Assembly (NCBI RefSeq): GCF_036370855.1
Contig: NC_088102.1
Span: 20,193,001-20,257,000 of the forward strand
Length of the DNA: 64,000 nucleotides
Direction of reading: 5' to 3'
From: Dromaius novaehollandiae
Lineage: Eukaryota; Chordata; Aves; Casuariiformes; Dromaiidae
The notes under the pieces were generated by a model, which saw nothing but the letters and a program-made list of their open reading frames with translations, was not told the origin of the DNA and did no database searches. This document shows, in pieces, positions 28,301-34,300 of the stretch. A program made the position numbers and the translations under genes. Every line of letters starts with the position of its first letter. Within the stretch, counting starts at the first letter, position 1.

Positions 28301-31300
28301 GATGAAGAGATTCTCAGGCTTGTATCTCAGATTTTAGAAGACACATTCAAGAACTTGTTCTCAAAGCACAAACTATGAGAAGAGACAGTCATACAGCCTT
28401 GTAAGCATATTTCAGGAAAAGAACAAAGCCAGCAATCAGTGGTAAATTAGGAATTGTTTTTCAAGTACACATCACTTTAATATAGTATGCACTCACATCT
28501 TTTTTCAAAAAGTATGAAAGATTTGATCATCTTTGCAAACATTTATCACATTATTGAAACAAGATAATATTTTAATATGTTAACATATATTAAAATGTCC
28601 TATCAAGACCAAATCCATACTTGCTGGGTGGGTAAACAGACTATATCTATTTGAAAGAATAGCTTATGTAAACTCCAGCTGCTACAAACTCTAAATGGGA
28701 AACGCAAACTAGATTATTCAATTGCATTTGTATTTACAAAAGTCTGCAGATTCTCAGAGTGTCCCAGGATTTGTGGATGATCTATGAACTTACAAACGCT
28801 GAAGGCAAGAAAAGGACTCCTAGTTCATAAGAACGAATCATCAATTGGGTGCCATTTTTCTCCAGAGCTCCCCAAGCTGCTTTAGATAGATTGGCACTGC
28901 AAAGAGACAGAAAGCATTTCAGTGAGGCATAACTTCACAGCAGCAAATACTGACCTACTACAGCTGTAGCAATGCACTTTAGTAGGAGAACTTGACTTGA
29001 ATCAGAACAGTCTTTTCACATAAAGCAATTTGGCCATTCTTCCTTATTGCTATTTTTACAGCACAGTGGGAGCAGTAGAGGTACTATATAGTAGGGCATT
29101 CATACACTGCATATGGATAATTATAAAAGTCTGCATGTATCACATTCTACAAGAGCAGTTCAACCTTTTGATATTCATCTGCACATTTCAGAAGGATAAA
29201 GGGTATGGGTAAACAGATTTAACCTTTTGATTTAGGAAGATGAAAGGCTTACTCAATAATGACTATAAGACATTTAGTATAGAACATTTCTGGAAGTATT
29301 AAAGTAGGTATCTCTTGCTTCTAACATTTTGTTCTTTGATGCATTTATAAAAAACAACTAAGAAGTTTTTTTTTGTTTTTTGGGGTTTTTTTTAAATGCG
29401 CTATTCTGCATCATACTGTAGCTAATCCTTCATCTGTTATCTGCTACGAAGTAGATCAAGTTGGAGTCAGGAAGTGAATGCAATTCTATGGTCAAAACCT
29501 ACAGAAAAATACAAAGCTTAAATGTTTAAGTTTTAACTGACAGACATATTGGATGCTTTCTTGATAATAGTGTACAGTAGAAGAAGAGAATGAGAGAAAA
29601 AAGCCCTCTTGTATTTCAATCAGATCATGTTTTCCTATGTTAGCTAACTTCAAAAAAGCTAACAGGCAAAGCTTCCCTATTAATTTGTAGATTAATGTCA
29701 GTTTGAAGCATGCCAGGACACAGCAGGAGTTGATGACATAACCACTTCTAAAGCAGTCTAGCATGTCTTTTACCCTATAAAATATCTATAGATAGATATA
29801 ATTTCTAAAAAATATATGGATTAACTCATCTGCATACCACATAGTGTTGTAATACTAGCATTTGCTGCTGCTTCCAGAAACTAGAACCTCAAAGTTCTAC
29901 AAAGACTGGTAGCAAACACAGCAAAGTCAGTAAACAAGACAATTTTGAAAGTTAACTATGAAGAACGGAGTTGAGTCATACAGCCTCTTTCTTTACATAC
30001 ACACCATTTGTAGAGCAATATGGATGTTTCAGATTACAACCCCCAAAAAGAACCTTAATTAAAACTGAAAGATTTCAGATGTGAAAAAGATGTAAAGATT
30101 CACCACTGTATACCATCCTTATCAAGCATGGATATCCAATATTAATTCAAATTAACAAGTGCAGATATCCAAATTAATTTCAATATTCACATCTACCATA
30201 AGTGGTATCAGTCCTAGTTATACAGTCTCAGAGCAACAGAAAGATGTTTCAAGAATAAAAATTAATGGAATTCCTTTGCCATATTACAATAAGTGTCCAG
30301 TTAGCTTCATACTACTTGCTACCTTCAAAAGTAGTTCCACATAGGTTGTGTAAGTTTTATTGTTGCATAAGGAATGATCACATGAAATAGAAAAAAACTT
30401 GCTGCTTAATTGTCTCTCCCTCCCCACTTGCCATACTGGTGTTACATTCTCTCAATCTCATCACGTAGATGAAAAACAAAGAACAGGAGCTGTATAAAAC
30501 TCTTATCTTTCTCCTTAGTACTGTGTAAGAACCCAAGAGCAGATGTAGTGAGCCACACCAAAGGTCCAGTTAATCCACTTGCTAATCTCTGACAATGGTC
30601 AGGAGCAGCTCCCTACAGAAAAAGCATTACTACAGGCAGATCTCATTTTATTGCACTCTGCTTTATTGCGCTTCACAGATACTGCAGTCTTTACAAATTG
30701 AAGGTTTGTGGCAACTCTGCATTGAGCAAATCTTTTGGTGCTATTTTTCCAATAGCATATAGCTCACCTTGTGTTTGTGTCACATTTTGGTAGTTCTCAC
30801 AATATTTCTAACTTTTTCATTATTATTATTATATCTGTTATGGTGATCTGTGATCTTTGATGTTACTATTGTAATTGTTTTGGGGCACCTCGAGCTGCTC
30901 CTGTATAAGACAGCAAACTTAAATGTTGCATGTGTTCTGACTGCTCTGCCAACCGGATGCTCCTCTGTCTCTCTCCCTCTCCTCAGGGCCTCCTATTCCC
31001 TAAGACACAACACTATGGAAGTTAGGCCAGTTAACCCTACAATGGCCTATAAGTGTTCAAGTGAAAGGAAAAGTTGCACACCTCTCATTTTAATTTAAAA
31101 GCTAGAAATTATTAAGCTTAGTGAGGAAAGCACGTCAAAAGCTGAGAGACTGAAAGCTAGGCCTCTTGTGCCAAACAGCCCAGTTGTGAATGCAGAGGAA
31201 AAGTTCTTGAAGGAAATTAAAAGTGCTACTCCACTGAACACAAGAATGATAAGAAAGCAAAACAGCCTTATTGCTGATATGGAGAAAGTTTTACTGGTCT

Positions 31301-34300
31301 GGATAGAAGATCAAACCAGCCACAACATTCCTTTTAAGCCAAAGTCTAATTCAGAACAAGGCCCTAACTCTCTTCAATTCTATGAAAGCTGAGAGAGGCG
31401 AGGAAGCTGCAGAAGAGTTTGAAACTAGCAGAGGTTGGTTCATGAGGTTCAAGGAAAGAAGCCATCTCCATAACATAAAAGTGCAAGGTGAAGCAGCAAG
31501 TGCTGATGTAGAAGCTGCAGCAAGTTATCCAGAATTATCTACCTAAGATAACTGATGAAAGTGGCTACACTAAACAACAGATTTTCAATGTAGACAAAAC
31601 AGCCTTATATTGGAAGATGCCATCTAGGACTTTCATAGCTAGAGAAGTCAATTCCTGGCTTCAAAGGACAGGCTGACTCTCTTGTTAGGGGCTCATGCAG
31701 CTGGTGACTAAGTTGAAGCCAATGCTCATTTACCATTCTGAAAATCCTAGGGCCCTCAAGAATTATGCTAAATCTACTCTGCCTGTGCTCTGTAAATGGA
31801 ACACCAAAGCCTAGATGACAGCACATCTGTTTACAACATGGTTTACTGAGTATTTTAAGCCCACTGTTGAGACCTGCTGCTCAGAAAATAGATTCCTTTC
31901 AAAATATTACTGCTCATTGACAATGCACCTGGTCACCCAAGAGCTCTGATGGAGATGTACAAGATTAACCTTCTTGTCGTGCCTGCTAATACAACATCCA
32001 TTCTGCAGCCCATGGATCAAGGAACAATTTCAACTTTAGTGTTATGAAATGTATTTCTTAAATAGTAAGACTTGAGAGCTGCCATAGACAGTGATTCCTC
32101 TGATGGATCTAGGCAAAGTAAATTGAAAACCTTCTGGAAAGGATTCACCATTTTAGACGCCATTAAGAATATGAGATTCACGGGAGGAGGTCAAAATATG
32201 AACATTAACAGGAGCTTGGAAGAAGCTGATTCCAACCCTCATGGACGACTTTGAGGGGTTCTAGACTTCAGTAGAGGAAGTAGCTACAGATGTGGTGGAA
32301 ATAGCAAGAGAACTAGAATTAGAAGAAAAGCCTGAAGATGCAACTGAATTGCTGCAATCTCATGATAAAACCTTAACTGATGAGGAGTTGCTTCTTATGC
32401 ATGAGTAAAGAAAGTGGTTTCTTGAGATGGAATCTACTCCTGATGAAGATGCTGTGAACATTGTTGAAATGACAACAAAGGATTTAGAATATTACATAAA
32501 CTTAGTCGATAAAGCAGCGGCAGGGTTTGAGAGGACCGACTCCAATTTTGAAAGTTCTCTTGTGGGTAAAATGCTATCAAACAGCATTGCATGCTACAGA
32601 AATCCTTTGTGAGAGGAAGAGTCAATCAATGCAGCAAACTTGATTGTTGGCTCATTTTAAGAAATTGCCACAGTCACCCCAACCTTCAGCAACCACCACC
32701 CTGCTCAGTCAGCAGCCACCAACATCAAGGCAAGGCCCTCCATCGGCAAGAAGATTACAACTGGCTGAAGGCTCAGATGATGGTTAGCATTTTTTAGCAA
32801 TGAAGTATTTTTTTAATTAAGGTATGTACTTTTTTTTTTAGACATAATGCTATTGTGCACTTAATAGACTACTGTATAGTGTAAACAACTTTTATATGCA
32901 CTGGGAAACCAAAAAATTTGTGTGACTCACTTTATTGCAGAGGTCTGGAACCAAACCTGCAATATCTCTAAGATATGCCTATATATTCTTATCCTGGTTT
33001 TATAACTCCTCTAACATACCCTCCTAGCCTCCTTCCATTTGCAGTTCAAGGATTCTTGGCCAGATGAGCTCCGTTATCAGCTTACCACCACTAATTTGCA
33101 GCTTCTTAAAACTAAGAGCACATCACAAAGTGCAATATAAAGTTGTACAGAGGTTCCTAAATCAAAGGTGGGTGTGTGCAGATGCCCTGGAACAGTATGA
33201 AGTTGAAAGCCTATGTCAGGTCTTGGATCAATGTCTGCCTTGTGTAACTGTATACAAAGAAACTGTATAGCACAGAGATCACTTTCAGGCAAAAAAAGTC
33301 CTCCCAAGTAGAAACATGAAATCAGTAACTGCCTAGTTAATAGTTGTGTTATTTTCAGTGGTAGTGCCAGGTTATGCTTTGACAGGTGGTGAACACTAAG
33401 GGTTCTCAGAGGTACAAGTGTTGAAGTTCACTATCTTCACGCTCCTCATACAAAAAAAGGACTGAAGAACTACTTTGGTCTCAGTTATTTCCTTATCCAT
33501 ATAACAAAAAACAGGAAAGAAGCATATTAGGCTCAAAGAAATCGAACAAAGTTGTGGGCTTCTCAAGAGATCCATCCAGGCTTCACAGAAAAGTATTTCA
33601 AGTGAAACAGGAAACATTTTTCCCCCCGTCTCTGATTTTTCTTGATAATTCTTCACTCCGAAATCTGCAGGAAAACACTTCACTAAGAACAAGCAAGTCT
33701 GTGATGCTTCCATCCAAAAAAAAAAAAAAGTAAAGACCTCCATGGGTATGCCTGGAAATTGGACAGGTAAAGGCAGCAAAACTATGCAGTCAAACTAAAG
33801 CTCAGCTTCTCCCTCAGAAGAGTTCTCCAGCAGAAAGATTCGGCTTATCCTTCAGCAACCATATTAGTAGAAACATGGGAAGGAAGAGACATCTTCCTTG
33901 ACATTTTCATTTTACTAGTAGCAAAGAGAATTTGGTTCTTGTCCCCAACGTATAATCCTACTGAAGTACCATAGCAAACAAAGTGCAGAGCAATGTACAA
34001 AACTGATTTCTGATTTATACACCTATAAAAGCAGGTGAATCTGATCTGCAGAGTCAAATTAAACCCTGATACATCCACATCTTGAGTTCTGTTTTCAATT
34101 CTGCTTTTCACAACTTGAATAGGACCTATGGAATTTAGGTGTATAGAGAAAGGCAACTAAAACAATTAAGCTGGAGCAGCTCCTTTCAAGGAGAGATTAA
34201 AGGAGCACACACTTCAGTTTGGAGAAAAGGCTAAAAGTGGATCACAATCAAGTTTATAGAAATTAAGGCAGTTTAACAAGTTGGAATACTTTAATGTAGA

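What the first reader, a model, noticed from the sequence alone, without database searches (positions are those of the whole stretch)
30633..32981. Mammal-type Tigger1 DNA transposon in an apparently avian genome
Seen: a 2349-bp element with Tigger termini, TA flanks and a decayed pogo-type DDE transposase. Its non-coding leader, coding region and 3' end follow the Tigger1 consensus I recall from placental mammals almost word for word. Known: Tigger1 is described as a repeat of placental mammals and I know of no vertical Tigger1 in birds. Inference: such close identity, non-coding parts included, is hard to explain by inheritance over the mammal-sauropsid split, because neutral DNA would be unalignable. 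Horizontal transfer into this lineage, or of both lineages from a common source such as a parasite or virus, fits better. The decay suggests an old insertion, not a recent one.
Basis: partly seen in the sequence, partly recalled or inferred. Interest (0 to 1): 0.88.

Follow-up and report, generated by a model that had tools for sequence, protein, structure and literature searches.

The report
Mammal Tigger1 transposon in an emu-type bird
A jumping gene known from placental mammals sits, dead but with an almost unchanged family sequence, in many places of a large flightless bird's genome, which points to an old jump of DNA between distant animals.

Summary
Window 30633-32981 is a decayed Tigger1 (pogo) transposon flanked by TA, in an intron of TDP1. 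The host is a bird: 1.468 Gb genome, TDP1 71% identical to human (421 of 590, human sequence recalled), alphaA-globin scoring as identical to PDB 3WTG (recalled: emu), RH2 opsin with the ERY motif that kiwi lack. So emu or a close relative. The copy is one of a family: 40 long copies fetched (window copy included), 141 terminal-repeat hits against 4 in the control, TA on both sides of 36 of 40, plus a 335-bp deletion derivative. Copies differ from it by 4.9% (non-CpG) and decay neutrally. Part of mammalian MER2, and MER5A, gave no match, so contamination is very unlikely. Horizontal transfer is by far the best explanation; donor, direction and date are open. It is not wholly new: Platt et al. 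2016 saw Tigger1 in brown kiwi in passing and could not exclude contamination. Main weakness: the mammalian sequence is from memory, and no other bird genome could be examined.

The parts
30631..30632 (.). TA target-site duplication, left
   Evidence: sequence; TA on both sides of the window copy and of 36 of 40 copies
30633..32981 (+). Tigger1 copy (pogo, Tc1/mariner superfamily), decayed
30633..30645 (+). left terminal inverted repeat (consensus CAGGCATACCTCG)
30646..31041 (+). 5' non-coding leader
   Evidence: by homology to consensus positions up to 424
31042..32787 (+). remnant of the transposase gene (consensus 593 aa: CENP-B_N, HTH_Tnp_Tc5, DDE_1), frame broken; ends placed by eye
32031..32078 (-). 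private micro-inversion of about 48 bases inside the transposase remnant
   Evidence: consensus 1446-1493 matches this stretch on the opposite strand at 85%; no other of the 40 copies shows it (first visible as reverse hits at 1399-1446)
32788..32968 (+). 3' non-coding region
   Evidence: by homology to consensus positions from 2207
32969..32981 (-). right terminal inverted repeat, last base A where most copies have G
32982..32983 (.). TA target-site duplication, right
35771..35875 (-). TDP1 exon upstream (in the gene's sense) of the insertion, human residues 479-513
   Evidence: tblastn with recalled human TDP1, 91%
28794..28898 (-). TDP1 exon downstream of the insertion, human residues 514-548
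   Evidence: tblastn; upper end placed by eye

Best explanation
This is one dead copy of a Tigger1 family that entered the germ line of this bird lineage horizontally, amplified by cut-and-paste at TA sites with its own transposase, gave rise to a 335-bp internally deleted derivative (MITE) moved in trans, and then died and decayed neutrally. Shown here: family, terminal repeats, TA duplications, coding capacity of the consensus, decay without coding constraint, and that no scored place reads the whole transposase without a stop. Inferred: that a transposase of this sequence was active in the bird, that it moved the derivative, and that the transfer took place roughly 30-60 million years ago (0.049 divided by recalled bird and ratite rates of 0.8-1.5e-9 per site per year). 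Not known: donor, direction (mammal to bird, or both from a third host) and vector.
For: Consensus of 37 copies equals recalled eutherian Tigger1 at 2402 of 2419 columns; transposase 585 of 593 residues; the non-coding parts differ at 7 of 636 consensus positions, two of them CpG and one an indel. Host TDP1 has 71% identity with human. The recalled Tigger1 sits on a 0.0034 branch inside the star of copies, whose own branches average 0.043. 36 of 40 copies have TA on both sides; 300-bp flanks of different copies do not match each other except in the three C33/C35 pairs. 141 terminal-repeat hits against 4 in the reversed control. MITE: 19 places cover nearly the whole derivative (40 of 287 candidates scored). 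Codon positions diverge alike: 4.6, 4.8, 4.1%. No match to MER2 (first part) or MER5A; the AluY part of the same query gave three matches of about 75 bp on C5, which I take for 7SL RNA genes, untested.
Against: The eutherian Tigger1 sequence was recalled, not fetched; I wrote it down after seeing only the window copy and, and it fits the bird consensus (99.3%) far better than the window copy (92.5%), which argues that the recall is real, but a Dfam check is needed. No other bird or reptile genome could be searched, so patchy distribution, which horizontal transfer requires, is not tested here. Published kiwi hits are at least 97% similar to the bat consensus, closer than the copies measured here are to theirs (40 copies, all-site K2P at least 0.050); I cannot explain that difference.
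Confidence: 0.9

Rival explanations
1. Vertical inheritance from the amniote ancestor, about 320 million years ago (recalled date).
For: Tigger-like elements occur in reptiles (PMC9219625, sections 3.1 and 3.3 read).
Against: Non-coding parts of the consensus match recalled Tigger1 at 629 of 636 positions; copies are only 4.9% from their consensus; copies show no constraint.
Confidence: 0.03
2. Mammalian DNA contaminating the assembly, as Platt et al. could not exclude for kiwi.
For: The element is otherwise known from mammals.
Against: The window copy lies in an intron of a bird TDP1; all 40 fetched copies lie on contigs of 27 to 220 Mb; C33 and C35 share three insertions with flanks 99.7-100% identical; no MER2 (part) or MER5A match and no Alu beyond three short matches; the bird copies share states that differ from recalled Tigger1, for example G at 55 in 36 of 37 and C at 57 in 35 of 37.
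Confidence: 0.01
3. The window comes from a placental mammal.
For: CpG depletion is strong (o/e 0.163).
Against: TDP1 71% to human; alphaA-globin scores as identical to 3WTG chain A; RH2 opsin, which placental mammals lack (recalled), is present, its C27 exons 85-97% identical to chicken as recalled; genome size 1.468 Gb.
Confidence: 0.01
4. Variant of the best explanation: both birds and mammals got the element from an unsampled third source (parasite, insect, virus), rather than birds from mammals.
For: Tigger elements are common in arthropods (PMC9219625); the two consensus sequences differ at few positions (nine non-CpG substitutions and one internal indel), so neither is shown to be nested in the other.
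Against: No relative of the transposase in IMG/VR viral contigs nor in GTDB genome contigs; both are weak tests for a eukaryotic donor.
Confidence: 0.4

Closest known systems
Tigger1 of placental mammals (Smit and Riggs 1996; Repbase/Dfam TIGGER1; recalled)
   Same: length 2418 bp, terminal repeats, TA duplication, 593-aa transposase, 99.3% of the consensus (recalled sequence)
   Different: host is a bird; nine non-CpG substitutions and one internal indel between the two consensus sequences, among them positions 55 and 57, nearly fixed in the bird copies (36 and 35 of 37)
Tigger1_MNa of Miniopterus and its brown kiwi hits (Platt et al. 2016, PMC4971623, passages read)
   Same: Tigger1 in a palaeognath; TIGGER1 and Tigger1_MNa share almost 97.5%
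   Different: a different palaeognath here, with chromosome-scale context, consensus, duplications and contamination control; kiwi hits were reported as at least 97% similar, the copies measured here are less
Tigger elements with claimed horizontal transfer between Eutheria and turtles or crocodilians (PMC9219625, sections 3.1 and 3.3 read)
   Same: pogo/Tigger, transfer to sauropsids claimed
   Different: that paper counts Tigger in one bird species, not named in the sections read, and names no bird in section 3.3 on transfer events
TIGD1 (human gene; recalled sequence)
   Same: 550 of 591 aligned residues identical to the bird consensus transposase
   Different: a single host gene, not a repeat family

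Membership tests
pogo/Tigger (Tc1/mariner superfamily) | CENP-B-type helix-turn-helix plus DDE_1 catalytic domain in one transposase | tested here: met
   consensus: DDE_1 E 2.5e-56, CENP-B_N 1e-20, HTH_Tnp_Tc5 6.5e-14; best solved relative CENP-B, 1hlv, E 7.8e-5
pogo/Tigger (Tc1/mariner superfamily) | TA target-site duplication | tested here: met
   both sides in 36 of 40 copies, 33 of 37 without the C33/C35 duplicates
pogo/Tigger (Tc1/mariner superfamily) | catalytic spacing; DD32D is given for TIGD1 in PMC7325037 (passage read) | tested here: met
   32 residues between the IDNAP and MDQG aspartates of the consensus, counted by eye
Tigger1 | at least 80% identity over at least 80% of the Tigger1 consensus | tested here: met
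   2402 of 2419 columns for the consensus, 2156 of 2331 aligned bases for the window copy; reference recalled, not Dfam
Tigger1 | best match in Dfam/RepeatMasker is Tigger1 and no reptile Tigger | not testable with these tools
   no Dfam and no reptile genomes held
horizontally transferred element | element divergence far below host divergence, non-coding parts included | tested here: met
horizontally transferred element | patchy distribution among relatives of the host | not testable with these tools
   own genome has no relatives here; in the papers seen, only kiwi is named
active element | a copy with the whole transposase frame open | tested here: not met
   no row of 96 (74 of 373 candidates scored) covers 1-593 without a stop; one covers 52-593 without stops but shows no coding constraint, 28 synonymous to 73 non-synonymous against 26% synonymous pooled

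The most novel reading that the evidence does not exclude
One Tigger1 founder, or a very narrow pool of near-identical founders, entered both placental mammals and the common ancestor of emu, cassowary and kiwi in the latest Cretaceous to Eocene, so that a single transfer wave linked mammals and southern flightless birds; the kiwi hits of 2016 would then be orthologous relics of the same invasion and not contamination.
Probability: 0.35. Interest if true: 0.8.

Novelty: new member of a known kind. Interest (0 to 1): 0.62.

Why it matters
I know of few documented transfers of DNA transposons between mammals and birds (recalled), and this case has an unusually clean signature: the founders in two classes were almost the same molecule. 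It turns a remark left open in 2016 for kiwi into a testable case, gives presence/absence markers for palaeognath relationships, and offers a datable pair of hosts for asking which vector carried the element.

Tried and rejected
Considered and rejected: kiwi as host (RH2 reads LAIERYIVV, while kiwi carry Glu134Lys, PMC4511969 passages); local hopping as the reason for near-identical linked copies (flanks unrelated, but differences lie towards the ends and the core is identical or nearly so, which looks like conversion); domestication of the copy with the longest open frame; contamination.

Led nowhere: Rfam, tRNA scan, recalled CR1 3' end, MIR and AluY against the window (only one weak 23-base MIR match, E 0.86), search of papers for the terminal-repeat letters (0 papers), viral contigs by protein and by a 23-base word, GTDB genome contigs by protein. 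Paper searches for Tigger with Dromaius gave 0 papers and with Apteryx 2 (PMC4971623 and an owl genome paper seen only in the listing). Searches brought no further report of Tigger1 in a palaeognath in what I saw of their listings (titles and starts of abstracts) and in the papers opened from them: PMC7325037, PMC5753468, PMC9025800, PMC9112768, PMC6857515 and PMC8310711, of which I saw passages only. PMC8310711 screened emu with RepeatMasker and reports 0-11 full-length (frame-bearing) DNA transposons per bird genome, which does not conflict with broken copies. The library holds open-licence papers only. A genome search with the full consensus DNA did not complete, so the youngest copies were judged alone.

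Not done: divergence without the converted pairs; a test of C33/C35 with Z-linked genes (their being sex chromosomes is inferred from size and collinearity); structure prediction.

Changed on checking: the private inversion of the window copy was recognised only at the end and had inflated its divergence.
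Full report
What is there. The element at 30633-32981 is bounded by TA on both sides, has the CAGGCATACCTC-type terminal repeats, and carries the remains of a pogo-type transposase gene. It lies on the plus strand inside an intron of TDP1, whose exons are on the minus strand from 61850 to 4316. 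About 48 bases of it, 32031-32078, are inverted relative to the other 39 copies.

The host. The window is G000:C5:20193001-20257000 of a genome of 1,468,444,375 bases in 271 contigs. Its TDP1, compared piece by piece, is identical to human TDP1 (recalled) at 421 of 590 residues. The alphaA-globin read from three exons on C14 scores 308.0 bits against PDB 3WTG chain A, exactly its score against itself; in one trial each, one to four changes gave 306.3 to 300.5. I recall 3WTG as emu hemoglobin; the tool gives only the molecule name. The green opsin RH2 has an intact ERY motif, which kiwi have lost (PMC4511969, passages). Contigs C33 (71.8 Mb) and C35 (86.0 Mb) carry shared Tigger insertions and shared receptor-like genes in the same order, mostly at an offset of about 13.7 Mb (up to 13.9 Mb), as expected of the large pseudoautosomal region of ratite Z and W (PMC6735826, passages). 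I conclude emu or a close relative. Cassowary is not excluded.

The family. With the window copy as query, 40 of 180 candidates were scored and gave 63 rows: 38 long copies in one piece (the window copy included), two more copies in two pieces each, and 21 short rows, 19 of them reverse matches to the inverted stretch. I fetched these 40 copies; three are C33/C35 duplicates. Thirty-six of 40 have TA on both sides. The pattern TA plus the first 21 terminal bases, with up to 3 mismatches, occurs 141 times against 4 for the reversed control. Of six further sites sampled, five continue like full-length copies to the end of the 0.65-kb stretch fetched, and one is a 335-bp derivative joining positions 1-178 to 2247-2418. 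A search with it finds 19 places covering nearly all of it, itself included, two pairs of them on C33/C35 (40 of 287 candidates scored).

The comparison. Thirty-seven copies give a CpG-aware consensus of 2418 bases. Against the eutherian Tigger1 consensus that I had written down from memory before, 2402 of 2419 columns agree. Of the 17 differing columns one is the last base, one an indel, six are called as CpG in the bird consensus and nine are other substitutions. The transposase agrees at 585 of 593 residues. The memory is not a database record; that it fits the consensus far better than the one copy I had seen by then (2402 of 2419 columns against 2156 of 2331 aligned bases) is my reason to trust it. 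Platt et al. independently state that TIGGER1 and the bat Tigger1_MNa share almost 97.5% and that Tigger1_MNa has more than twenty hits in brown kiwi (PMC4971623, passages). Kiwi are the sister group of emu and cassowary (PMC6857515, passages).

Age and decay. The 37 copies differ from their consensus by a mean non-CpG K2P of 0.049 (0.035 to 0.072) and 0.065 over all sites; the window copy has 0.068 and 0.089, and 0.057 non-CpG without the inverted stretch. Divergence is much alike in leader, coding part and tail (5.5, 4.5, 5.0%) and over codon positions (4.6, 4.8, 4.1%), so copies decay without visible constraint. No scored place reads 1-593 without a stop (96 rows, 74 of 373 candidates scored, best amino-acid identity 92%). 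With recalled rates of 0.8-1.5e-9 per site per year the mean corresponds to about 33-61 million years. That straddles the split of Casuariiformes from kiwi (54-56 Ma with internal calibrations; 39-66 Ma over the estimates seen) and is older than or level with crown Casuariiformes in most estimates (26-33 Ma, with 9 and 13 Ma in some; PMC12368558, passages). A table in Platt et al. gives distances of 14 to 16% for TIGGER1 in four genomes whose column headings I did not see, that is more than here.

Why horizontal transfer. Neutral non-coding DNA cannot stay 99% alike over the mammal-sauropsid split; the copies are young relative to that split; and the recalled mammalian consensus falls at the centre of the bird star with a branch of 0.0034. 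Contamination does not fit an insertion into a bird intron, copies on contigs of 27 to 220 Mb, insertions shared by two homologous contigs with flanks 99.7-100% identical, nor the absence of matches to MER2 (part) and MER5A (three matches of about 75 bp to AluY on C5 are probably 7SL RNA genes, untested).

Against it, told in full. No second bird genome was available. The kiwi hits of 2016 were reported at 97% or more, closer than any of the 40 copies measured here is to its consensus. Direction and vector are unknown: viral and prokaryote-genome collections gave no relative, which says little about eukaryotic donors. The mammalian reference is recalled.

A side result. Four pairs of copies, each on one chromosome 0.3 to 1.5 Mb apart, are 94.9 to 98.5% identical, although their flanks are unrelated. 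In the best pair (L013, L014) at least 1.8 kb of core has no difference while the first 200 positions differ at 20; L021/L023 and L015/L035 show a similar pattern, L024/L032 a less clear one. That looks like gene conversion between linked copies, and it means that pairwise ages of such copies mislead.

Novelty. The element is a known family in a new host; a relative host was noted in 2016. What is added is a chromosome-scale case with consensus, duplications, derivative and contamination control.

Noticed in passing
L013/L014, L021/L023, L015/L035, L024/L032 (C1, C1, C3, C35 of G000): Linked copies share long identical or nearly identical cores but differ towards their ends and in their flanks: probable gene conversion between dispersed transposon copies.
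   Followed up: partly
window 32031-32078: A private inversion of about 48 bases inside the window copy, not seen in the other 39 copies.
   Followed up: yes
L081:25-359 and 18 further places: A 335-bp internally deleted derivative of the family (positions 1-178 joined to 2247-2418), at least 17 loci after merging C33/C35 pairs.
   Followed up: partly
L020 (G000:C2:117559000-117561975): A copy open over transposase residues 52-593 without a stop; its substitution pattern is neutral, so probably chance.
   Followed up: yes
G000 contigs C33 and C35: Collinear homologous contigs with an offset of about 13.7 Mb over tens of Mb, likely W and Z with a large pseudoautosomal region.
   Followed up: partly
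window 62001-64000: GC rises to 0.57 just upstream of the TDP1 start; likely a CpG-island promoter, perhaps shared with the neighbouring gene (recalled: EFCAB11).
   Followed up: no
L024 and L028: C35/C33 alleles of one copy differ at 12 of 2419 bases while 556 flanking bases differ at one; conversion of one allele is possible.
   Followed up: no
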